NCBI RefSeq assembly: GCF_002120225.1 | Contig: NZ_LAPZ01000007.1 | Location: 62,001-126,000 of the forward strand | DNA length: 64,000 nucleotides | Direction: 5' to 3' | Origin: Tenacibaculum holothuriorum | GTDB taxonomy: Bacteria; Bacteroidota; Bacteroidia; Flavobacteriales; Flavobacteriaceae | Part shown: one piece after another, positions 1-10,052 of the stretch | How the letters are laid out: the number at the start of each line of letters is the position of its first letter | Numbering within the stretch: position 1 is the stretch's first letter | Program-made: the position numbers and the translations under genes | Notes under the pieces: model-generated | What the model saw: the letters and a program-made list of their open reading frames with translations, nothing else | Told to the model about the DNA's origin: nothing | The model's database searches: none

Positions 1-2538
1 AGTATCAGAGTAACGAGAAACTACAGCAACTTTTAACTTCATAAAAAATGCCAAATCTTCTTTATACCGTTGTATTTGTTTCTCTGGTGTTGCTTTGTGA
101 AACTCTATAGAAGATAAGGCTAGTTTTAATAAGCGTGCATATGAATTTAACTGGTTATAAAACTTCGCACGAATTGCCTCATCTCTTAATAATTGTTGGT
201 AAGCTTCAGCATCTTTTTTATTTTCTACAGCCTCGAAAAGTTGCCATACATCAGAATATGCTTGGGGTAACTTTTCTATTTCTATAGTAATATTAGTAAG
301 TGTTCCCTGTAATTGCTCTTGATCAAAATCTTCAAAAGCAGAATAAGTCTTTAGTGCACCATCTAATTCTTTTAATACCCCATAATAATCAATAATATAA
401 CCGTAGTCTTTATCTTTTGCTACTCTATTAACTCTGGCAATAGCTTGTAATAAAGTATGACCAACTAATTTTCTTGTCAAATATAATACTGTGTTTTGTG
501 GTGCATCAAAACCTGTTAAAAGTTTATCTACCACAATAATTAACTCTGGATGGTTATCATTTTTATAACGATTGACAATATTGGTTTGATACTTTTTAGC
601 TGTCCCATGCTCATCCATCATTTTAAGCCAAAACTTTTTTACTAATTCTGATGTTTCTCCATAAGCCGATTCTTCTCCCTCTCTTTCATCTATAGGAGAA
701 ATAACCAATTCACTAGACACTCTACCAATTTCATCCAAATACTTCTTATATTTTACAGCAGCAGCTTTACTTTGGCAAACAACTTGCCCTTTAAATACAG
801 TACCTTGAAAGTTTTTAACGAAATGGTTTGTGATATCCCAACAAATAGCATAAATCTTTTGATCAGCGATATTTAATTGTCCTGCTCTACTAAACTTCTT
901 TTTTAAATCAGCTTTCTCATAGTCAGACAAAGGTTCGGAAACCATGTTGAAAAAGTTATCTAAAGGGCTCGAATTTACATCTTGTAAAGCATGCCTACCC
1001 TCATATAATAATGGAACAACAGCTTTGTCTTTAACAGCCTGATCTACCGTGTAACTGTCTATAAGCGTACCGAATTTAGCTAAGGTATTTTTATCTTTTT
1101 TAAATAAGGGAGTTCCTGTAAATGCGATAAAACAAGCATTCGATAATGTTTTTTGCATTTCTATATTAAAAGTACCATGTTGGGTACGGTGTCCTTCATC
1201 TACTAACACAAAAATATTCGGACTTTCTAATGGCGTTTGTATCTTTTTAACTGCAGTGGTAAACTTATTTACAATAGTAGTAACCACAGCATCACTTTTA
1301 CTCTGCAATAACTCTACTAGTTTCGTCCCAGACTTTGCATTCTCCACATCTACACCACATTTTCTAAATGTTCCTGTAATTTGTGTGTCTAAATCTGTTC
1401 TATCTGTTACTAAAATAATTTTAGGATTCTTAATACTAGATTCCATAGCAATAGCTTGTGCTAGCATTACCATAGTTAACGATTTTCCACTTCCTTGTGT
1501 ATGCCATACTACTCCTCCCATTCGTTTTCCATTTTGTAAATGACATAACTGATTCATGGCTTTATGAATAGCAAAATATTGCTGATAACGTGCAATCTTT
1601 TTAGCTCCATTATCAAATAAAGTAAAATTATATGCTAAATCTAATAATCGTTTTGGTTCACATAAACTAAAGACATACCGATCTTGTGGAGTTGGTAATA
1701 CTCTTGTTTTTTCTAACTCATCAAAATAAGCACGAACATACCTATATCGCTCTGTAAATAAATTATCTTTTACTTTGGTGGAAAGTGGAGTGTTTTTTAA
1801 TTTTAATAACGTTTCTTCGTATTGTAATTCTTCTTCCTTGTTCTTAAAGTTTTCTTGCCATTTTGCCCAAAACTTTTCTGGAGTTCCTGTAGTAGCATAA
1901 CTTCCTTCGTTTACGGTTACACTTATTACCAATTGTGCTAAACTATATAAACTGCGTATTCCATCGTCTTTTTGATTACGCAAGTTTTGTGATATAGCCT
2001 GTTGCAAAGGATCTTTCATATCGGGTCGTTTACACTCTATAACACAAAGAGGAATTCCGTTTACAAACAATACAATATCTGGTCGGTACTCAACCTTTAA
2101 CCCCGAACGTAAGACACTAAACTCTTCTGTTACGTGAAATACATTGTTTTCAATGTTTTTCCAATCTATGTAATGAATATCAAAACTTTTACGATCACCA
2201 TTTATACTTTGCTCTACAGATTTCCCTAAGGTTAGTAATTCATATAATTTTTGTGCTGTGCTAATATATCCATCTACCATAGGAACATCTCGTAAGGCTA
2301 TAATAGCAGCTTCAATATTATTCTCAGTAAAAGCTACTTCTTTAGTAGACGAAACTTTGGCATTATTAATTTGTTTTAATTGGGCTCTTAAAATATTTTC
2401 TAAAAAAATACCTGACGTTTTATATCCTCTTTCTGCTAAGGCTTCTTCTGGGGTTATATAGGTGTAGCCCATTGTAATTAAAAGCTGTAATGCGGGTAAT
2501 TGAGATATATGATCTTCTTTAAATGACGGTGTTTCCAT
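1..2538 (-). CDS. hsdR: Type I restriction enzyme, R subunit HsdR (partial, C-terminus outside window)
   Basis: ATP-dependent translocase and endonuclease subunit of a type I restriction-modification enzyme; with HsdM and HsdS it cuts DNA lacking the host methylation. The reading frame is open from an ATG at 2538 to the window edge (846 codons), so the C-terminus is missing; family members run to about 1000 residues. The N-terminal nuclease domain shows the PD-(D/E)xK pattern D154...E168-C-K170. A SF2 helicase motor follows, with Walker A GSGKS at 349-353 after HTQ, and the DEGH box of the type I family (VDEGHRTQ). The start lies only 5 bp after the stop of the RT-nitrilase gene, so expression is almost certainly coupled to the operon that begins with hsdM at 9153. 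Family identity is certain; the part inside the window appears intact. Confidence 0.96.
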   Translation of the reverse strand, partial: METPSFKEDHISQLPALQLLITMGYTYITPEEALAERGYKTSGIFLENILRAQLKQINNAKVSSTKEVAFTENNIEAAIIALRDVPMVDGYISTAQKLYELLTLGKSVEQSINGDRKSFDIHYIDWKNIENNVFHVTEEFSVLRSGLKVEYRPDIVLFVNGIPLCVIECKRPDMKDPLQQAISQNLRNQKDDGIRSLYSLAQLVISVTVNEGSYATTGTPEKFWAKWQENFKNKEEELQYEETLLKLKNTPLSTKVKDNLFTERYRYVRAYFDELEKTRVLPTPQDRYVFSLCEPKRLLDLAYNFTLFDNGAKKIARYQQYFAIHKAMNQLCHLQNGKRMGGVVWHTQGSGKSLTMVMLAQAIAMESSIKNPKIILVTDRTDLDTQITGTFRKCGVDVENAKSGTKLVELLQSKSDAVVTTIVNKFTTAVKKIQTPLESPNIFVLVDEGHRTQHGTFNIEMQKTLSNACFIAFTGTPLFKKDKNTLAKFGTLIDSYTVDQAVKDKAVVPLLYEGRHALQDVNSSPLDNFFNMVSEPLSDYEKADLKKKFSRAGQLNIADQKIYAICWDITNHFVKNFQGTVFKGQVVCQSKAAAVKYKKYLDEIGRVSSELVISPIDEREGEESAYGETSELVKKFWLKMMDEHGTAKKYQTNIVNRYKNDNHPELIIVVDKLLTGFDAPQNTVLYLTRKLVGHTLLQAIARVNRVAKDKDYGYIIDYYGVLKELDGALKTYSAFEDFDQEQLQGTLTNITIEIEKLPQAYSDVWQLFEAVENKKDAEAYQQLLRDEAIRAKFYNQLNSYARLLKLALSSIEFHKATPEKQIQRYKEDLAFFMKLKVAVVSRYSDT

Positions 2539-2543
2539 AGCAA

Positions 2544-5500
2544 TTATCTGTTTTCAACGTTTAAATAGTCAAAATCAGGAGGTGTATTTTTAAAAACCTT
2601 TGTGTCTTGACCAGAAATTCTCAACTTTTGAAACTCTCTAAGCTTCTTTATGTCTATTTTCCCTAATAAAACGACACTGTTTTCTCCTCCTTTTAACCTT
2701 AAAATGTCTTTTATAGCAGTTTTAGCAGGTCTAGTTATTCTTGAATCTCCAAAATCAGAACTGTTAGCTTGCACAAAATAACAATGCACATCTCTAGAAA
2801 CTGTTTCAACAATATTGGAGAAATAATTTACATCTTGATTATATTCAGATGCGAATAGTACATCTACTTTTGATTTGAATAAAGCTCTATGATGTATATC
2901 TGCCAGCTCATAACAATTATAATTACTAAAGTGAATTCCACGCCATATAAATAAATTATATAAAGCTTTACTAAGCTTAGGAACTATTTTACCTCTGTCT
3001 TTAATCAATTTTGTCTCAGCAGGAGAATAATGATTCTTTAATCTAAAATTAATTATTGCATCTTTAATACCGTTATGCTCCATTGGCAAAATAGTAGCTA
3101 GTAAATTATAACACATATTATTAATTCGGATGTGTTCTAAACCTACAATAATTGCTCTTTGTTTTCTACGAGCTTGGTCTGCCAAAATAGGCAACCATCT
3201 ATATGGAGTACTTACTTCAGGCAATATTAAAATATCAGCTTTTACTTTTTCAGCGCCATTAATTAAGTCTATAAAATCTTTTCGTCTTTCTTTATCTGTG
3301 TTAGGTGTTTCAAATAACGATTTAGCTATATTAGATTTCTCTACTTTTGTATTGGCAACTGCTATTTTTAAATCGTTTGTTATTTTTTTTGATTGTGGAA
3401 TTTCTAAAGTATTATATCCTAATGTTTCATTTTTATCTCTAAAACCTTTGTCTATTTTAAAATAATAATCCTTCAAGTTTTCGGAATAATTACTAACTTC
3501 TTCACCATTTTTTGAGTCAAAATAAGTATTTCTATACTTATAATTTACTTTAAAAAAAGCATTGAAGCTTTTATCATATATTTTTTGCTCTAAATCTTCA
3601 AACATTTTTAAATGTCTATTTTTTGCCTGAAAGATTAGTTTTCTTAAGAAGTAAATACTATTGAATTCATACAAATAAATAAAACGTGGTGCATATCTTA
3701 ATTTCTTCTTATCAAAACTTAGATTTTCTTTACTTAACTCTACATTTAAAGTTCTTAAATAATCATATTTAACTAAATTTACATCCTCTTCATTTGCTAT
3801 TTTTAAATAATTAAGTAATGGTACAACCACAAAGCTATTACGTAATAAATTAGCCCTTACATACTCTTCTTTTAAACTATAAACTCGTTTATAAAAGCTA
3901 CTGTTAAACCAACTAAATCTAAAACGACTACATCTATCTTCCCACCAATTTTGAGTTACAAAGTTAGGATTCAATGCCGTAGCCATAGCACAACAATTCA
4001 TTAAAAACTCACTCAAATACTTTTGTATATTTTCAATTTCTTCCTTTTTAAGCTTCTTGTTGTCAAAAGCTTTTATACTATCAATTGCATATATAGTTTC
4101 TTTAAAAAACTTCCAAAAAGCTTTTCTGTCATCAACTATTACAAAATAAGTTAAGACCTTTTCCCAAAGGTTAGAAAACTCTAAATTTATAATACCTTTA
4201 AAAAAGGTGAGTATTTGTTCTGTAGTTTTATCATCTTTTTCATTATCCGATAATAAACTTACTTTTATTCGTTTTGCTAAAAAAATAGAAGCTCCATATT
4301 TACTTTGTTTAATATCTGAAACACTTCTTAATTTATTAACCGTATCTGTATAATTTAATTCATAAACACTCTCATCAAAATCATCATTAATATCATTTTC
4401 ATTAGGTAAAAACCAAAATGCGCTAGAATGTTGTTCTATTTTCTTTTTAAACATATCTAGTACTGCCTGAGATTCTTTACTCTCAAAAGAATATAAAATA
4501 ATTTTATCTTTTTGTATTTCTATAAGTTCATTATCAACAAATTGATACGTAATTTCTTTTTTGATTTCTTCACAAATACAGTCTTTATTTTTTGATTTAT
4601 GAATCGTCTTTTTTTCTTCTACTTTAGGTTTAAAAATTTTACGATCTACAAAAAACTTATGTAAAAAAGCTTCTAAAGGAGAGTTGAATTTAGTTTCATC
4701 AAATGTTTTTAAAATCTTAGTGTTACTAAATACAATTAAAATATCATCTACGTATCTACCGTAATAAGCAGGTGCTAATTCTTCTTTTATTTTTCTATCA
4801 AAATCAGTTAAATACCAATTAGCTAATATTCCTGAAGATAATATACCAATAGGCATAATTGCTTTAGAATTTTTAGGACATATTTTTTGATACGCATCAT
4901 TTATGTCAAAAATCATCTGGGTAAATAATGTTCCTCTTATTCCTAATTCAGTAGTTATTTTTTGGTGTATTTTATCTTGTAAATCTAGGTTATAGTTAAT
5001 ATTATAATAATATTCTTTAATATCTAAAGCTAGTATTACAACATCTGTATCGTTAGCTACTATATTTTTAGCTAAGTCAACTCCTTTATCTCTCCATCTT
5101 TGGTATTGATCAAAATAAGGTTTAAACAATCGTAAACCATCAACTACATTGCCACTTTCTGAATTTAGTTCTAAATAATATGCATAGTTGTCTTTATGAT
5201 ACTCTTTATGCAATACAAACCCTTCTTTTAAAATCCATAGAATAGAAATAATATGTAATTCTATTGGTCCTTTAAAAAAATAGTTTACTTTTTCTAAAAG
5301 ATAGCTGCTTTCTGTAAAATTGTTACTAATAATATTATCTCCATAATTAAATGGTTCTCTAGAAAACTTTTTTGGAGCTACATAATAATTTATTTCATTT
5401 AATAATGCTTCAAAATAGCTTCGATTATTTACTGGATCATTTAAAAATTCTACCAGTTTAGCTAAGCATTCTTCAAAATTTGAACTCGATTCAAATTCCG

Positions 5501-5609
5501 CTATTTGTTGTCTTAATAATAATGAAAAGTTATCGTAATATACATAGCTTTTTAGTTTTCTATAGGCTAGTTCAATATCCTTGAGTTCAAATTTTGTTTT
5601 CTTTTTCAT
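2544..5609 (-). CDS. Reverse transcriptase-nitrilase fusion, UG1/DRT1-like defence protein embedded in the hsd operon
   Basis: A 1021-residue two-enzyme protein. Residues about 150-330 form a reverse transcriptase palm: motif A LALDIKEYY with D196, motif B MPIG...SSGILAN at 252-264, and catalytic motif C YVDD at 286-289. Residues about 330-730 are a long, mostly helical region with no domain I recognise. Residues about 745-990 are a carbon-nitrogen hydrolase (nitrilase) domain with the full Glu-Lys-Cys triad: E798 in LPEVS, K858, and C899 in YNCYELAD. RT fused to nitrilase is the known architecture of the UG1 (DRT type 1) and related UG-group defence reverse transcriptases, which act against phage; the substrate of the nitrilase is not known. 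No maturase/HNH domain is present, so this is not a group II intron protein. The gene lies between hsdS and hsdR with 50 bp and 5 bp gaps, and both active sites look intact. Assignment to UG1 rather than a sister group needs a tree. Confidence 0.93.
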   Translation of the reverse strand: MKKKTKFELKDIELAYRKLKSYVYYDNFSLLLRQQIAEFESSSNFEECLAKLVEFLNDPVNNRSYFEALLNEINYYVAPKKFSREPFNYGDNIISNNFTESSYLLEKVNYFFKGPIELHIISILWILKEGFVLHKEYHKDNYAYYLELNSESGNVVDGLRLFKPYFDQYQRWRDKGVDLAKNIVANDTDVVILALDIKEYYYNINYNLDLQDKIHQKITTELGIRGTLFTQMIFDINDAYQKICPKNSKAIMPIGILSSGILANWYLTDFDRKIKEELAPAYYGRYVDDILIVFSNTKILKTFDETKFNSPLEAFLHKFFVDRKIFKPKVEEKKTIHKSKNKDCICEEIKKEITYQFVDNELIEIQKDKIILYSFESKESQAVLDMFKKKIEQHSSAFWFLPNENDINDDFDESVYELNYTDTVNKLRSVSDIKQSKYGASIFLAKRIKVSLLSDNEKDDKTTEQILTFFKGIINLEFSNLWEKVLTYFVIVDDRKAFWKFFKETIYAIDSIKAFDNKKLKKEEIENIQKYLSEFLMNCCAMATALNPNFVTQNWWEDRCSRFRFSWFNSSFYKRVYSLKEEYVRANLLRNSFVVVPLLNYLKIANEEDVNLVKYDYLRTLNVELSKENLSFDKKKLRYAPRFIYLYEFNSIYFLRKLIFQAKNRHLKMFEDLEQKIYDKSFNAFFKVNYKYRNTYFDSKNGEEVSNYSENLKDYYFKIDKGFRDKNETLGYNTLEIPQSKKITNDLKIAVANTKVEKSNIAKSLFETPNTDKERRKDFIDLINGAEKVKADILILPEVSTPYRWLPILADQARRKQRAIIVGLEHIRINNMCYNLLATILPMEHNGIKDAIINFRLKNHYSPAETKLIKDRGKIVPKLSKALYNLFIWRGIHFSNYNCYELADIHHRALFKSKVDVLFASEYNQDVNYFSNIVETVSRDVHCYFVQANSSDFGDSRITRPAKTAIKDILRLKGGENSVVLLGKIDIKKLREFQKLRISGQDTKVFKNTPPDFDYLNVENR

Positions 5610-5659
5610 TTGGGAGACTTTAATTTAATTTTAATGAGCTAGTTTCTTATTCTAAAGTA

Positions 5660-5956
5660 TTAGTTTAAACTAACCTTATCTCTAGCTAATGCAACTAAGT
5701 ATTCTTCTTTATTATTATATTTTTTTAAAGCTGTAATTTTACCTTTTACTGTATCTTTTATTGTATTGTCATACTCAAAAGTAACTTTTAAAAAAACTTG
5801 ATCTAACAAATTTATACTGGCTGTAACATCCTTTAGTTTTTCAAGTTTGCCATTAAGAGCATTATGGCACTGTAGATATAATGCCTGAAGATCTTTATCA
5901 AATTCTTGACGCTGGGCTTTGCTCAATTGTGTTATAATTTCAAATTCTTTTTTCAT
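5660..5956 (-). CDS. Unknown 98-aa protein between hsdS and the RT-nitrilase gene
   Basis: A small charged protein that I do not recognise. It is mostly helical at the N-terminus (many K, E, Q and L residues up to about residue 50), then has a likely beta stretch (VFLKVTFEYDN) and a final helix. There is no signal peptide, membrane segment or cysteine pair. It starts at an ATG 31 bp after the hsdS stop and ends 50 bp before the RT-nitrilase start, on the same strand, so it belongs to the same transcript. Position suggests an accessory or regulator of the RT-nitrilase or of the restriction enzyme, but nothing in the sequence proves either. That it is a real gene is supported by operon spacing and by the absence of a competing frame. 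Confidence 0.75.
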   Translation of the reverse strand: MKKEFEIITQLSKAQRQEFDKDLQALYLQCHNALNGKLEKLKDVTASINLLDQVFLKVTFEYDNTIKDTVKGKITALKKYNNKEEYLVALARDKVSLN

Positions 5957-5987
5957 TTTTCTGATTCTTATTTAATTCTTTGTATGT

Positions 5988-7223
5988 CTAATACTTCAAT
6001 CTTTTTTTACCTGTTAGTAACTGCTGCATTAATCCTTTCTTCTGTTGTTGTAATTGTTGTAATTGCACTTGTAGTAACTCAATTTCTTTATCTGCCGTAT
6101 TTAATATATTGGCAATAGCTGTTTGTTCTTTATATTCGGGAATAGTTATTTTTAGTTTTAAAAAATCCTTTTTACTCATAACTCTGTTTCTACCTGCACC
6201 TCCCGGAGATATTAATTCTAATAAGAATCTAAATCTTTTAGTTTTAATAAACTGTTCAAAAAATAATGAACTTCCTATATTTTTTTTAAATGTATATGTC
6301 GGAAATCTGTGAGAAACTAATCCCCCATCATCCTCTTGCTTAACAATAGCAATAGCTCCTTCCCATGCAAAAGTTATATTAACTATAAGATCATTTTTCT
6401 TAACTTCAAAAAGTTTATCAATAGCAATAGCTTCTGGCTTAAAGTTTTTATTTTGAAAAGTTCCTTTGCAATGACTTCTTATACCTAGTTTTGTAAATGG
6501 TATATTAGGTTTAGTTATTGGTCTAGGAGTATATTCTAAAAAATACGTTAAACTCTTTTCTTCCCACTCCTCAGTAAACCCAGGCAAACGTTTTTTACCC
6601 GTTAACAACTGTTGCATTAAGGCGTTCTTTTGAGTTTGTTTTGCTTGTATCAATTGGGTTTGTTTTTCTATCGCAATATCCCAAGTGGATAAACAATTGG
6701 CTATGGCTTTTTGTTCTTGGATTGGGGGTATAGCCAATTTTATCGTCCTAAAATCATTAGTACTCAATTCTAAAAAAGTACTTCCGGAGGATAGCTTAAT
6801 TAATACATTTTTATATTGTCGTAATAAATAAAAAATATATTCCACATCATTTTTATCATTTACGATTAGATTTTTAAACCCTTGATTTGTTGAAGCTTCA
6901 TATTTTGAAATAGCAAGTTCACCAATAGTAGCTCTTGTACAAACCATAATTGTTCCCTTAGGAAATAAAGTTGCAGAAGAATTTTTTAATCCTTCATTAG
7001 AAATTCTTCTTTTAGAAGAATCTGCAAATTTTAAAAAAAGATTAATATCAGAAGGTGTAAACCATAAATGGTCATTATTCCAATACTCTTTTTGATTGGT
7101 ATTTGGTGTTCCACCTGTAACCACTTTTCCTACATCATTTATTTTTAAAATATTCCATTCATTAGGAATCCATCCTAATTTTGTTTTTTTATAGCCTAAC
7201 CTCTTTTCTTTTGGATCTAACAT
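5988..7223 (-). CDS. hsdS: Type I restriction-modification specificity subunit HsdS
   Basis: Target-recognition subunit (411 aa from the ATG at 7223). It has the two-half layout of the family: target recognition domain 1 from about residue 17 (GWIPNEW), a central conserved helix region ending in LMQQLLTGKKRL, target recognition domain 2, and a distal helix region that ends in the same LMQQLLTGKKRL motif followed by KY. The two conserved regions each begin with an IP..EQ.AIAN motif, giving the pseudo-dimeric spacer helices that bind two HsdM. A TTG codon lies directly upstream in frame, but the ATG overlaps the stop of the preceding 134-aa gene by one base (TGATG), which favours coupled start at the ATG. 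No second silent hsdS copy or recombinase is seen nearby. The two half-site sequences recognised cannot be read from sequence alone. Confidence 0.95.
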   Translation of the reverse strand: MLDPKEKRLGYKKTKLGWIPNEWNILKINDVGKVVTGGTPNTNQKEYWNNDHLWFTPSDINLFLKFADSSKRRISNEGLKNSSATLFPKGTIMVCTRATIGELAISKYEASTNQGFKNLIVNDKNDVEYIFYLLRQYKNVLIKLSSGSTFLELSTNDFRTIKLAIPPIQEQKAIANCLSTWDIAIEKQTQLIQAKQTQKNALMQQLLTGKKRLPGFTEEWEEKSLTYFLEYTPRPITKPNIPFTKLGIRSHCKGTFQNKNFKPEAIAIDKLFEVKKNDLIVNITFAWEGAIAIVKQEDDGGLVSHRFPTYTFKKNIGSSLFFEQFIKTKRFRFLLELISPGGAGRNRVMSKKDFLKLKITIPEYKEQTAIANILNTADKEIELLQVQLQQLQQQKKGLMQQLLTGKKRLKY

Positions 7224-7627
7224 CAACTGGTAAACTTTTTAGCTATTAATTCTTTAATTAGTTCTAAATTATCATAAGTAACGTTGTCTTCTACTTTTGA
7301 TTCTCCATAAGTCTCTTCTATAGAAAAGGAAATTGGAGAGATTGAACTATTGAAAAAACGAACCGTTAAAATTCTAGTCTCTTTGCTATTTGACAAATCA
7401 AAAAAATATCGAACATGATCTATAAACATTGTGTCTTTCACTTGGCTATGATAATCTTTAAATGATTTATAGATTGGTGCAGGGTCTATAACACCTCTCA
7501 AATCATTTTCTTCAAAATAATATCCTTTAAACTTAGCTTCTAAAGAAAACTCCTTAGCTATTTGAACTACGTATTTTTTAATTCTATCATCTTGATTTTG
7601 TAACCATTTTTCAAATGTTTTACTCAT
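7223..7627 (-). CDS. Unknown 134-aa protein translationally coupled between hsdM and hsdS
   Basis: I do not recognise this protein. It is soluble (no signal peptide or membrane helix), acidic and basic residues are mixed, and the middle contains alternating hydrophobic stretches that look like beta strands (RILTVRFFNSS, HVRYFFDLS). Its start codon overlaps the hsdM stop by four bases (ATGA) and its stop overlaps the hsdS start by one base, so it is inside the modification part of the operon and should be made together with HsdM and HsdS. This tight coupling argues for a role with the methyltransferase or the restriction complex, for example an accessory or control protein, but that is inference only. 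Confidence 0.85.
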   Translation of the reverse strand: MSKTFEKWLQNQDDRIKKYVVQIAKEFSLEAKFKGYYFEENDLRGVIDPAPIYKSFKDYHSQVKDTMFIDHVRYFFDLSNSKETRILTVRFFNSSISPISFSIEETYGESKVEDNVTYDNLELIKELIAKKFTS

Positions 7628-9153
7628 AATCCTAATTCTTTTAAATAGTTTTCCATTGTTACACGTACCTCGTTTAACTCCTTTTCCAAAGTTCTAATAT
7701 CTTTTTGCACTTCGGTAATATCAATTTCCGTTTCTTCTTCAAAAGTATCTACATAACGAGGTATGTTTAAGTTATAATCGTTCTCCTTTAATTCTTCTAA
7801 AGTAGCCACATAACTATACTTATCTTCTATAATTCCTGCTGTAAGTTTATTTTCTTTAAACTGAGTGTACGTATGTACAATACGCGTTATATGTTCGGGC
7901 AATAATCGGTTTTGGTTTTTATCGCTCACAAAACTTTGGCTAGCATCTATAAACAAGGTTTCCTTGCGTTGTTCTTTACCTTTGTTAAATAATACAATAG
8001 CCGCAGGTATGCCTGTTCCAAAAAACAAATTGGCTGGTAAACCAATAACCGCATCTAATAAATTATCGGTAATTATTTTGGTTCTTATTTTTCCTTCGGC
8101 ACTTCCTCTAAACAAAACACCGTGGGGTACTACCACGCCAATCATACCCGTATCTTTATACGCACTTTCAATCATGTGGGTAATAAATGCCCAGTCTCCT
8201 TTACTCTTTGGTGGTAATCCTCTATGAAAACGCTCAAATCTATCGTCTTGTAAGTCTTCTTGTCCCCATTTATCTAAAGAAAACGGTGGATTTGCTACCA
8301 CGGTATCAAACTTCATTAAAGCATCTCCCTCCAAATGTTTTGGATTACGTAAAGTATCTCCCCAACGGATATTGGCATTATCAAACCCATGTAAAAACAT
8401 ATTCATTACTGCCAAAGCCCAAGTACTTCCGTTTGCTTCTTGTCCGTACAATGAGAAGTTAGTATCGCCAACTTCTTTACCCGCTTTTATTAATAGCGAA
8501 GCAGAACCACAGGTAGGATCATAAATTCTGGCTCCTGGTTTTGATTTGGTAAGCTTTGCTAATAAAGTAGAAACTTCAGCAGGGGTATAAAACTCTCCTG
8601 CTTTTTTACCTGCATCACTTGCAAAGTTTTTGATAAGATATTCATAAGCATCTCCAATAATATCGTTGCCTTCTAAATGTGATGGAGTTAAATCTAACTT
8701 AGCAAAATCTTGTAATAAGTTTTTTAAACGAGTATTTTTATCTTTCTTTTCTCCTAAGTTACTACTGTTAAAACTTACATTTCTAAAAATTCCTGCACCA
8801 TCTGCACTGGTTAGCTTTTCTCGGTTAGCCTCTTCTAAATCTGCTAAACCTATATCTATTAACTCTCCTATATTGGGTTCATTTCTTTGATCGTACAACC
8901 AATTAAAATGACTATGCTCTGGTACTACAAAACGTTCTAACTGCATGGCTCTGTTAGCTCTTTCTATATTTCCATCATACTTTTTTAAATATTCGTTATG
9001 CTTTTCTGTGTATACGTCTGATACGTATTTTAAAAATAGCATTACTAAAATGTAATCTTTGTATTGACTTGGATCTATTACTCCTCTAAAAGTATCACAG
9101 GCTTGCCAAACTACTCCATTGATTTCTTCAGTTGTTACCTTGGTGTTTTTCAT
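7624..9153 (-). CDS. hsdM: Type I restriction-modification DNA methyltransferase subunit HsdM
   Basis: N6-adenine methyltransferase subunit; transfers a methyl group from S-adenosylmethionine to adenine within the HsdS-defined site. From the ATG at 9153 it has 509 residues. The N-terminal HsdM_N helical region (to about residue 150) is followed by the catalytic domain with SAM motif DPTCGSASL (212-220) and the catalytic NPPF motif (288-291). The C-terminus carries the usual helical tail contacting HsdS. A TTG codon 18 bases upstream could extend the frame by six residues (MIIKSN), but the ATG gives the normal family start. It is the first gene of the hsd operon; the region upstream to 9298 has no other gene on this strand. 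Confidence 0.96.
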   Translation of the reverse strand: MKNTKVTTEEINGVVWQACDTFRGVIDPSQYKDYILVMLFLKYVSDVYTEKHNEYLKKYDGNIERANRAMQLERFVVPEHSHFNWLYDQRNEPNIGELIDIGLADLEEANREKLTSADGAGIFRNVSFNSSNLGEKKDKNTRLKNLLQDFAKLDLTPSHLEGNDIIGDAYEYLIKNFASDAGKKAGEFYTPAEVSTLLAKLTKSKPGARIYDPTCGSASLLIKAGKEVGDTNFSLYGQEANGSTWALAVMNMFLHGFDNANIRWGDTLRNPKHLEGDALMKFDTVVANPPFSLDKWGQEDLQDDRFERFHRGLPPKSKGDWAFITHMIESAYKDTGMIGVVVPHGVLFRGSAEGKIRTKIITDNLLDAVIGLPANLFFGTGIPAAIVLFNKGKEQRKETLFIDASQSFVSDKNQNRLLPEHITRIVHTYTQFKENKLTAGIIEDKYSYVATLEELKENDYNLNIPRYVDTFEEETEIDITEVQKDIRTLEKELNEVRVTMENYLKELGL

Positions 9154-9297
9154 ATTTGATTTAATTATCAAAAGAAGACTATACTTATATTATTAAATTA
9201 AAAGCAATTTTTTAGAAGCTTAAAAGTACAGAAATTAGTCGAAATATAATTATAGATTTCCATAATTATATAATGCTATAAGTCTATAAAAATATAA

Positions 9298-9324
9298 AGC
9301 ACTTAGATGTAGTTACTAAGTGCT
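9298..9324 (-). terminator. Rho-independent terminator of the 50-aa gene
   Basis: AGCACTTAG and CTAAGTGCT form a 9-bp perfect stem around a 9-base loop, followed on the minus strand by a T-rich stretch. It sits 24 bp after the stop of the small gene at 9349-9501 and separates it from the hsd operon. Confidence 0.7.
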
Positions 9325-9348
9325 ATTATTGAATTATATTATGTTTAT

Positions 9349-9501
9349 TTAGTTCTTTTTGCTTTCATAAGCTTCCTCTAAAGCTTCAATTTGCATTTCT
9401 GGATAATCAAAACCAGTACCTGAAAGTTTATCGAGTATCCAAGAAGCTTTTTTCATATCCATACCAATTAAAGCTTCGGCAAAATCTCTAGTAATAATCA
9501 T
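9349..9501 (-). CDS. Unknown 50-aa protein
   Basis: A short frame from ATG at 9501 to TAA at 9349, too small for usual cut-offs. The product is acidic and largely helical (MIITRDFAEALIGMD at the start, EALEEAYESKKN at the end), with no cysteines and no membrane segment. It is followed by its own terminator (9298-9324), which supports it being a real gene. Its first bases overlap the decayed AraC gene on the other strand. I do not know its function. Confidence 0.55.
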   Translation of the reverse strand: MIITRDFAEALIGMDMKKASWILDKLSGTGFDYPEMQIEALEEAYESKKN

Positions 9502-9966
9502 TTTATAAAAGCTACAGATAATAATTTATTGTTTTTATCGCCAAGACATACTATATATTGGAAAGTTTTAGGGGAAGATACAATTCACGAAAAAATAGAT
9601 TATTTAATACTATTTAAGCCTGAGTTCCTCTCGTTCAGCGAAACTGTTTATGATATTTATAAAACTTTTCCATTTTTTAATCATAATGCAAATCCTATTT
9701 TTCGTATTTCTGATGAGCTAAAAAAGTATTTTAAAGAACTTATCGAAAAAATTTATTTTGAGTATCAAAACAATAAACAAGATAGTATTGAATACATACG
9801 AAGTTATCTCACTATTTTTCTTTTAACAGCCAAAAGAGAATTAATGCATTCTACTAAAACAATTACTGAAGTAGCTTTTTTACTTGGATTTGAAGATGTT
9901 TCAAACTTTGTGAAGTATTTTAAAAAGCAAACAGGAGTTACTCCTTTAAAATTTATAAAAACCTAA
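9472..9966 (+). pseudogene. Decayed AraC-family transcriptional regulator
   Basis: The readable part, about 165 codons from a stop at 9469 to 9966, matches pieces of a flavobacterial AraC regulator: the end of the N-terminal cupin-like sensor domain (NNLLFLSPRHTIYW), the linker helices, and the last part of the DNA-binding domain (TITEVAFLLGFED, then FVKYFKKQTGVTP). Intact members have about 280-300 residues. The beginning of the sensor domain is missing and there is no ATG, only a TTG at 9529. The first helix-turn-helix is also absent: the sequence jumps from RSYLTIFLL straight to TAKRELMHSTK. Two deletions therefore make DNA binding unlikely. The neighbouring secreted protein at 10053 may have been its target. 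Confidence 0.75.
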
Positions 9967-10052
9967 TATTTTACCTTTTTTACATTGTTTTTAGTATTTA
10001 ATTAATGCTTTTGGCACAATAATTTTGTGACGTAATTTAAAAGCAGATTAAA

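What the first reader, a model, noticed from the sequence alone, without database searches (positions are those of the whole stretch)
2536..9153. RT-nitrilase defence gene built into a type I restriction operon
Seen in sequence: a 1021-aa protein with an intact RT active site (D196, YVDD 286-289) and an intact nitrilase triad (E798, K858, C899) is placed between hsdS and hsdR, 5 bp before hsdR, on the same strand, with no terminator inside the operon. Established knowledge: RT fused to nitrilase defines the UG1/DRT1-type defence reverse transcriptases; the anticodon nuclease PrrC is encoded within a type Ic hsd locus and acts when the restriction enzyme is blocked. Inference: the RT-nitrilase may be a second line of defence that is kept in check by, or released from, the restriction complex when phage anti-restriction proteins act. 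This would be a restriction-coupled RT system rather than a stand-alone DRT.
Basis: partly seen in the sequence, partly recalled or inferred. Interest (0 to 1): 0.93.

Follow-up and report, generated by a model that had tools for sequence, protein, structure and literature searches.

The report
RT-nitrilase cargo in restriction operons
A complete type I restriction operon carries, at a spot where related operons hold other genes, an intact reverse transcriptase-nitrilase gene that is likely a second, self-standing anti-phage weapon, and gene trees indicate that distantly related restriction operons have taken up such genes repeatedly, which makes a link between the two defences worth testing.

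Summary
An intact 1021-aa RT-nitrilase lies inside a complete type I operon, same strand, 5 nt before hsdR. It is UG5-type, not UG1/DRT1 (864.6 against 89 bits). Two small genes were missed: 134 aa between hsdM and hsdS, 98 aa between hsdS and the RT. The arrangement recurs: 18 of 80 UG5-nitrilase loci have a same-strand hsd gene within 2 kb, 17 within 300 bp, in several phyla. RT and hsd were not inherited together: one RT clade sits in three distant hsd groups and AU tests reject congruence. In other type I operons the hsdS-hsdR gap usually holds other genes (19 of 24; 7 of 7), many defence-type among those scanned. Print already calls this gap a potential recombination hotspot for defence systems (PMC12255303). 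Best reading: an exchangeable cargo slot, filled here by a likely autonomous, DRT1-like abortive-infection enzyme. A PrrC-like guardian that senses blocked restriction is possible but not favoured. New occupant of a known kind of slot; the repeated captures are the interesting part. My searches found no report of UG5 RTs in hsd operons, but three key papers were not held.

The parts
7624..9171 (-). hsdM, type I N6-adenine methyltransferase subunit (515 aa from TTG 9171; ATG at 9153 is an alternative start)
   Evidence: PF02384 3e-105, HsdM_N 4.3e-26; TIGR00497 above cut-off; PDB relatives include EcoR124II M protein
7223..7627 (-). 134-aa accessory gene in the hsdM-hsdS gap, overlapping both neighbours by 4 nt; no known family
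   Evidence: the protein database search found only itself, but relatives (34 and 35% identical) lie in the same hsdM-hsdS gap of two other Flavobacteriaceae hsd operons in which no RT was found (L168, L170)
5988..7226 (-). hsdS, specificity subunit with two target-recognition domains
   Evidence: PF01420, two stretches
5660..5956 (-). 98-aa accessory gene in the hsdS-hsdR gap; no known family
   Evidence: two relatives in the protein database; one (55%) in the hsdS-hsdR gap of an hsd operon in which no RT was found (L169)
2544..5609 (-). UG5-type reverse transcriptase-nitrilase, 1021 aa (RT core about 160-350, helical middle, nitrilase 742-1016)
1..2538 (-). hsdR, type I restriction/translocase subunit; continues past the window edge, intact (1071 aa in L136)
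   Evidence: HSDR_N 4.3e-32, SWI2_SNF2 2.3e-78; TIGR00348; L136
9172..9350 (-). likely promoter region of the operon upstream of hsdM (inferred from position only)
   Evidence: intergenic stretch read; the promoter scan finds no excess over shuffles (35 against 39.3), so no site is claimed

Best explanation
The operon is a complete type I restriction-modification operon in which a UG5 reverse transcriptase-nitrilase sits in the gap between hsdS and hsdR, a likely exchangeable cargo slot, and the enzyme likely works as an autonomous second defence layer, likely co-expressed with the restriction machine but not part of it. Shown: intact hsdM, hsdS, hsdR and RT-nitrilase on one strand with gaps of 5 to 50 nt or overlaps; recurrence in several phyla; RT and hsd trees that conflict; the same gap filled by other genes in related operons. 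Inferred from the solved and tested relative DRT1: the RT domain would make short untemplated DNA covalently on its own protein, this would build the tetramer that arms the nitrilase while a C-terminal lid keeps it quiet, and phage replication would release it, so that the nitrilase consumes an unknown essential amide or amine metabolite and aborts infection. The advantage of sitting in the hsd operon would be shared expression and joint transfer, with the RT covering phages that escape restriction.
For: Family and active sites. DRT1 mechanism, and template-free DNA synthesis by DRT1, DRT5S and DRT5L: PMC13275509. Recurrence: 18 of 80 loci, 17 within 300 bp, one further locus with hsd on the opposite strand. 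Exchange: RT clade window/L035/L013/L021/L014 spans three Hsd groups; the RT of L013 is 65% identical to the window's while HsdM and HsdR are 29%, and the reverse holds for L030 (RT 40%, HsdM 70%, HsdR 55%); AU p 9.9e-34 (RT data), 6.6e-66 (HsdR data), 1.5e-5 (HsdM data) (15 loci, groups named after seeing the trees, so the p values flatter). Position follows the Hsd group in groups A-C: between hsdS and hsdR 6 of 6, after hsdR 4 of 4 same-strand, after a terminal hsdS 2 of 2. Gap as cargo site: 19 of 24 other operons of M-S-R order hold at least one ORF of 90 aa or more there, and 7 of 7 in Flavobacteriaceae relatives with hsdS in view. GC: RT 26.1, p98 26.9, p134 27.4% against hsdS 29.4, hsdR 32.1 and hsdM 34.6%. 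Precedent: embedded TgvAB protects alone and regardless of HsdR nuclease activity (PMC11411939 section 8).
Against: No expression or phage data for this operon, and none for any UG5 enzyme in what I read. The position rule fails elsewhere: L080 (in group B's clade) has the RT on the opposite strand beyond hsdS; L064 and L138 differ; L065, L078 and L141 differ. The hsd-linked label is somewhat clustered on the RT tree (14 changes, shuffled mean 17.3, as low in 15 of 500), and the best alignment column separates embedded from free RTs better than in any of 60 permutations, which relatedness may explain but which could also hint at adaptation to hsd. TgvAB alone protected 10- to 100-fold less against several phages than the whole cluster, which its authors ascribe to expression. 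DRT1 was tested in E. coli MG1655, which from my own knowledge has its own type I system, so full autonomy is not proved there either.
Confidence: 0.62

Rival explanations
1. Restriction guardian, as PrrC: the RT-nitrilase is held inactive by the Hsd complex, or senses its blockage, and is released when a phage anti-restriction protein inhibits the restriction enzyme.
For: PrrC is embedded in a type IC operon, sequestered in the enzyme complex and released on T4 infection (PMC3874165, passages; PMC12707154, passages). Tight, same-strand, sometimes overlapping placement.
Against: RT lineages pair with distant Hsd families, and 38 of 50 evaluable loci have no same-strand hsd within 4 kb; embedded copies show no extra domain (mean 1003 aa, n 16, against 1050, n 37); the nearest solved relative carries its own silencing device (PMC13275509).
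Confidence: 0.18
2. Restriction feeds the sensor: DNA ends or single strands made when the type I enzyme cuts phage DNA activate the RT-nitrilase, so restriction is the trigger rather than the brake.
For: DRT1 activation needs the T4 single-stranded DNA helicase Dda (PMC13275509 section 9); any type I family would make similar DNA ends, which fits pairing with distant Hsd families.
Against: 38 of 50 evaluable UG5-nitrilase loci have no same-strand hsd neighbour within 4 kb; I saw no data that UG5 responds to DNA ends.
Confidence: 0.1
3. Plain defence-island neighbourhood: the RT lies next to hsd only because defence genes cluster, with no shared expression or benefit.
For: Of ten hand-picked RT neighbours four are defence-type (two at L024, one each at L048 and L074); type I operons hold many kinds of cargo; one of four control Drt1a loci also abuts hsdR.
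Against: Where hsd is near, it is nearly always on the same strand (18 of 19 loci) and within 300 bp (17 of 18), in seven loci with hsd genes on both sides, which plain clustering would not give.
Confidence: 0.1

Closest known systems
DRT1 (UG1 RT-nitrilase; PDB 9yfd; PMC13275509)
   Same: RT plus helical middle plus C-terminal nitrilase in one chain; D288/D289 and C899 align with DRT1 D324/D325 and C1116; conserved C-terminal tail with invariant K1007 and T1009, which I read as the counterpart of DRT1's lid (K1219, T1220)
   Different: Different UG group; DRT1's priming serine S402 is reported as not conserved in other class 3 DRTs; gene inside an hsd operon
UG5 RT-nitrilase (PADLOC RT_UG5-nitrilase; probably the 'DRT5L' of PMC13275509)
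   Same: This is its family (PDLC03780); purified DRT5S and DRT5L make DNA without template. That DRT5L equals UG5-nitrilase is my inference
   Different: Embedding in type I operons is not mentioned in the passages that I read; the words 'type I restriction' and 'restriction-modification' do not occur in that paper's main text
PrrC in EcoprrI (type IC)
   Same: A second-line gene embedded in a type I operon
   Different: PrrC is an anticodon nuclease with a described tie to the Hsd complex; no PrrC-type domain is found here
TgvAB in the V. cholerae VPI-2 type I operon; RloF of Campylobacter jejuni
   Same: Defence genes within a type I cluster (RloF between hsdR and hsdS, TgvAB similarly placed); TgvAB acts without HsdR nuclease activity
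   Different: GmrSD-type type IV restriction, not an RT
DarTG2 in the RptR-RMS-DarTG-M48 island of E. coli
   Same: Cargo between hsdS and hsdR, with a metallopeptidase gene downstream as in L136 (YgjP-like); the authors call the site a potential recombination hotspot
   Different: Toxin-antitoxin cargo; RptR was not looked for here
[quoted passage not shown]
   Same: An earlier printed remark that an RT lies with restriction genes (passage)
   Different: Another RT class (AbiK, a plasmid pSRQ800 example), no nitrilase, type of restriction system not given in the passage

Membership tests
UG5 RT-nitrilase (class 3 UG/Abi RT) | Best match to the UG5-nitrilase profile over full length | tested here: met
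   PDLC03780 864.6 bits, residues 2-1017; the next two are also UG5 models (471.4 and 382.2), Drt1a 89 bits
UG5 RT-nitrilase (class 3 UG/Abi RT) | Intact RT catalytic aspartates and nitrilase Glu-Lys-Cys | tested here: met
   D196, D288, D289, E798, K858, C899 invariant in 32 sequences, the window's included
[quoted passage not shown]
   Reported for DRT5S and DRT5L in PMC13275509
DRT1 (UG1) | Belongs to the UG1 RT-nitrilase family | tested here: not met
   Drt1a profile 4.4e-26, 89 bits, against 864.6 for UG5
DRT1 (UG1) | Nitrilase-fold C-terminal domain with catalytic Cys | tested here: met
DRT1 (UG1) | Autoinhibited filament with swapped C-terminal lid | not testable with these tools
   Only the conserved tail K1007, T1009, P1010, P1011 is seen
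PrrC-type restriction guardian | Gene lies inside a complete type I hsd operon | tested here: met
PrrC-type restriction guardian | PrrC/RloC protein family | tested here: not met
   Pfam and PADLOC find RT and nitrilase families only
PrrC-type restriction guardian | Long-term pairing with one Hsd family | tested here: not met
   AU tests reject congruent trees; for PrrC itself the pairing was not tested here
PrrC-type restriction guardian | Silenced by Hsd, activated by anti-restriction protein | not testable with these tools
   Needs a bench test
Defence cargo embedded in a type I operon | Same-strand gene between hsd genes of an intact operon | tested here: met
Defence cargo embedded in a type I operon | The same gap holds other genes in related operons | tested here: met
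   19 of 24 control operons; 7 of 7 in the family; contents of picked genes
Defence cargo embedded in a type I operon | The cargo defends against phages | not testable with these tools
   Inferred from DRT1

The most novel reading that the evidence does not exclude
UG5 RT-nitrilases are a restriction-guardian module: in type I operons of many bacteria they have been captured independently because they read the state of restriction itself, firing when the Hsd complex is blocked by anti-restriction proteins or when restriction-made DNA ends meet phage replication, so that a self-priming reverse transcriptase becomes the alarm of a restriction system that is blind on its own.
Probability: 0.22. 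Interest if true: 0.85.

Novelty: new member of a known kind. Interest (0 to 1): 0.5.

Why it matters
Restriction systems are among the commonest bacterial defences, and the hsdS-hsdR gap is emerging as a place where second-line weapons are exchanged. If class 3 reverse transcriptases enter type I operons again and again in distant restriction families, then either joint expression with restriction is worth a great deal or the enzyme reads something that any type I system produces. Both readings can be tested with one operon in E. coli. It also gives a simple way to find cargo: scan hsdS-hsdR gaps. The two small genes seen here (98 and 134 aa) belong to unnamed families found in the same gaps of other operons.

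Tried and rejected
UG1/DRT1 membership: rejected by profile scores. RT and hsd as one co-inherited unit: rejected. Noncoding RNA as in class 2 DRTs: no Rfam match at gathering threshold in window 1-10000, which does not exclude an undescribed RNA. Plasmid carriage: no match in 72,556 plasmid records at 1e-30. Viral contigs: 191 of 277 pattern stretches encode a relative (best 80 kept); of 79 listed loci only L172-L175 cover most of the protein; their surroundings were not analysed. Embedded-specific domain: none found (lengths; largest occupancy difference reached by 42 of 500 permutations). Homologs of the 98-aa and 134-aa proteins by database search: 2 others and none, although relatives turned up in genome stretches, so that search misses some. 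DRT1 (9yfd) did not appear in the fold search listings; the library ends in April 2026 and I did not check whether it holds 9yfd.

Counts that I corrected or weakened: two neighbours first taken for Hsd were not confirmed by Pfam: L137 (Eco57I-type methylase) and L139 (DEAD/ResIII helicase without HSDR_N). Row L002, the same locus as L137, was labelled hsd in the tree, so its 14 changes may be one too many. In profile-drawn samples, leaving out the two centres G000 and G422, 9 genomes remain: same-strand hsd within 2 kb in G159 (60 nt), G463 and G620 (one gene between); hsd some 4.9 kb off in G239; not confirmed in G295 and G002; none in G282; in G211 only an hsdM-like piece some 8 kb off; contig too short in G307. 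Controls: Drt1a loci 1 of 4 beside hsdR (L146; of the other three, L092 lies on a 4.9-kb contig and L145 at a contig start), Drt3a 0 of 5 (an HsdM-like hit several kb off in L151); these numbers are too small to show that UG5 is special among RTs. The control samples come from Bacteroidota and the control hsdR loci from genomes that carry UG5, so they are not random. The trees use the 15 of 22 chosen loci that have RT, HsdM and HsdR in view and an RT not in many pieces (L064 dropped); quick trees without the mixture model, with long-branch warnings. Genes were called by a simple ORF chooser and Hsd by home-made profiles; ten of the weaker Hsd calls were checked in Pfam, eight stood. The position rule was stated only after seeing groups A-C and fails in other groups. 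The cargo proteins scanned (9, 8) were picked by me, mostly the largest: 15 of 17 have a nuclease, ATPase, helicase, Schlafen, TIR, SLOG, DUF3800 or PADLOC candidate-defence match, 2 have none (L112, with a marginal DrmD match, and L164).

Literature: I judged from search listings and opened seven papers (PMC8934634, PMC4244168, PMC12707154, PMC3874165, PMC12255303: passages; PMC11411939: passages and section 8; PMC13275509: abstract, passages, sections 5, 8, 9, 18). Kojima and Kanehisa 2008, Simon and Zimmerly 2008 and Mestre 2022 (the last looked for under a DOI that I recalled) are not held; any of them may already mention hsd neighbours of UG5 RTs. Searches listed nothing that I recognised as reporting UG5 RTs inside type I operons; I did not open all listed papers.


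Full report
WHAT IS THERE. On the minus strand lie, in order, hsdM (9171 or 9153 to 7624), a 134-aa gene (7627-7223), hsdS (7226-5988), a 98-aa gene (5956-5660), the RT-nitrilase (5609-2544) and hsdR (2538 to beyond the window). Following the contig (L136), hsdR is intact at 1071 aa and overlaps by 1 nt a 231-aa gene that Pfam names YgjP-like metallopeptidase. Gaps between genes run from -4 to 50 nt. The consensus scan finds no convincing internal terminator and no excess of promoter-like sites, so one transcript is likely but not shown. hsdM, hsdS and hsdR carry their defining domains.

IS THE PLACEMENT MORE THAN CHANCE? I collected the best 80 of 534 confirmed UG5-nitrilase loci in species genomes with up to 10 kb on each side and searched them for Hsd genes. 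18 of 80 have a same-strand Hsd gene within 2 kb, and 17 of these within 300 bp; one more has hsd on the opposite strand. Of 50 loci with at least 4 kb on both sides, 12 have one. In seven of the 80, Hsd genes lie on both sides within 2 kb. Hosts include Bacteroidota, Pseudomonadota, Bacillota, Campylobacterota and Fusobacteriota (the Fusobacteriota case, L063, shows only two partial hsdS pieces). In profile-drawn samples (8 of 395 Bacteroidota and 3 of 299 genomes of G422's phylum), three of the eight evaluable non-centre loci have same-strand hsd within 2 kb, two of them with one gene between. Control RT families gave 1 of 4 (Drt1a) and 0 of 5 (Drt3a), too few for a firm contrast.

WERE RT AND HSD INHERITED TOGETHER? 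No. The window and Tenacibaculum larymnensis (L035) share the arrangement except for the two small genes (RT 82%, HsdM 97%, HsdR 88%). Flavobacterium aquaticum (L013) has a 65% identical RT beside HsdM and HsdR that are only 29% identical, in the order R-M-S-RT. L030 has a 40% identical RT beside a 70% identical HsdM and 55% identical HsdR, again between hsdS and hsdR. HsdM and HsdR trees agree on a group A (window, L035, L030, L014, L041, L057), while the RT tree joins the window with L035, L014, L013 and L021. Forcing agreement is rejected (p-AU 9.9e-34 for RT, 6.6e-66 for HsdR, 1.5e-5 for HsdM; groups named after seeing the trees). On the RT tree of 83 rows the hsd-linked label needs 14 changes, perhaps 13 (with the correction); it is mildly clustered (shuffled mean 17.3, as low in 15 of 500). 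In groups A, B and C the place of the RT follows the Hsd group: between hsdS and hsdR, after hsdR, or after a terminal hsdS (6 of 6, 4 of 4 same-strand, 2 of 2). L080, in group B's clade, is an opposite-strand exception, and in other groups the place varies.

WHAT ELSE SITS IN THE GAP? I took 31 other hsdR loci from genomes that carry UG5-nitrilases. Of 24 with M-S-R order (L110 counted although no hsdM is in view), 19 hold at least one ORF of 90 aa or more between hsdS and hsdR and 5 hold none; the other 7 have another order or are incomplete. Ten of 249 Flavobacteriaceae genomes have a close HsdR, the window's included; eight further loci were read: seven of seven with hsdS in view hold cargo there, and no RT was found in any of the eight. 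Scanned cargo includes GmrSD-type nucleases, an OLD-like ATPase, a Tmn-like and a LmuB-like protein, Schlafen-type proteins, TIR plus SLOG proteins and PADLOC candidate families. The 134-aa protein has relatives in the hsdM-hsdS gap of L168 and L170, and the 98-aa protein one in the hsdS-hsdR gap of L169. GC content sets RT and the two small genes (26-27%) below hsdS (29%), hsdR (32%) and hsdM (35%). So the window shows two cargo gaps, one holding the 134-aa gene, the other the 98-aa gene and the RT.

HOW IT LIKELY WORKS. The best-supported reading is a type I system with exchangeable second-line cargo; the present cargo is likely an autonomous DRT1-like enzyme. Shown elsewhere: DRT1 primes untemplated DNA on itself, the DNA builds tetramers and dormant filaments, RT and nitrilase are both needed, and T4 escapes by mutating the helicase gene dda; purified DRT5S and DRT5L also make DNA without template (PMC13275509: abstract, passages and sections 5, 8, 9, 18 seen). 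Inferred: that UG5 works the same way, that it is co-transcribed here, and that its trigger is phage replication rather than blocked restriction. The embedded TgvAB system protects on its own, and a nuclease-dead HsdR does not matter (PMC11411939 section 8), a precedent for independent cargo; PrrC is the precedent for the opposite (PMC3874165, PMC12707154, passages).

NOVELTY. Defence genes in the hsdS-hsdR gap are in print, and the gap has been called a potential recombination hotspot (PMC12255303, passages). [quoted passage not shown] My searches listed nothing on UG5 RTs as such cargo, but three key papers are not held and not all listed papers were opened. Hence: a new member of a known kind, with repeated capture across distant type I families as the surprising part.

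Noticed in passing
7223-7627 (-) and L168:7244-7648, L170:13220-13633: Unnamed family of about 134 aa in the hsdM-hsdS gap of three Flavobacteriaceae type I operons, two of them without an RT in view; overlaps or nearly touches both neighbours.
   Followed up: partly
5660-5956 (-) and L169:8533-8826: Unnamed family of about 98 aa in the hsdS-hsdR gap; only two other database relatives besides L169.
   Followed up: partly
left of the window, L136:8628-9323 (-): YgjP-like metallopeptidase gene overlapping the end of hsdR by 1 nt; genes of similar size (231-262 aa, not scanned) follow hsdR in most group A operons read, and an M48 gene lies downstream in the published RptR island.
   Followed up: partly
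left of the window, L136:6099-8357 (-): 752-aa KAP-family NTPase two genes after hsdR, possibly another defence gene.
   Followed up: no
L146:3359-7354 (-): A split Drt1 (UG1) RT-nitrilase abuts an hsdR of 1331 aa that contains an IS200-like Y1 transposase domain in the same open frame.
   Followed up: partly
upstream of hsdM in L164, L166, L167, L168, L169, L170, L171: A short same-strand gene of 184-208 aa with an HsdS-like match precedes hsdM in all seven group A relatives whose hsdM is in view (directly in five, with small ORFs between in L167 and L169), but was not seen in the window.
   Followed up: no
RT-nitrilase residues 390-432 (window 4442-4314, -): A run of invariant residues (S396, F398, L401, P402, Y420, D422, N425, R428, S429) lies in two of the least confident stretches of the model, as expected of a loop that changes state or carries the priming residue.
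   Followed up: no
L064:9983-14102: In Ochrovirga pacifica the RT-nitrilase after hsdR is in several pieces; described only.
   Followed up: no
G000:C22:430464-431660 (L143): The window's genome has a second hsdM-hsdS pair; no hsdR was found in the 20 kb read around it.
   Followed up: partly
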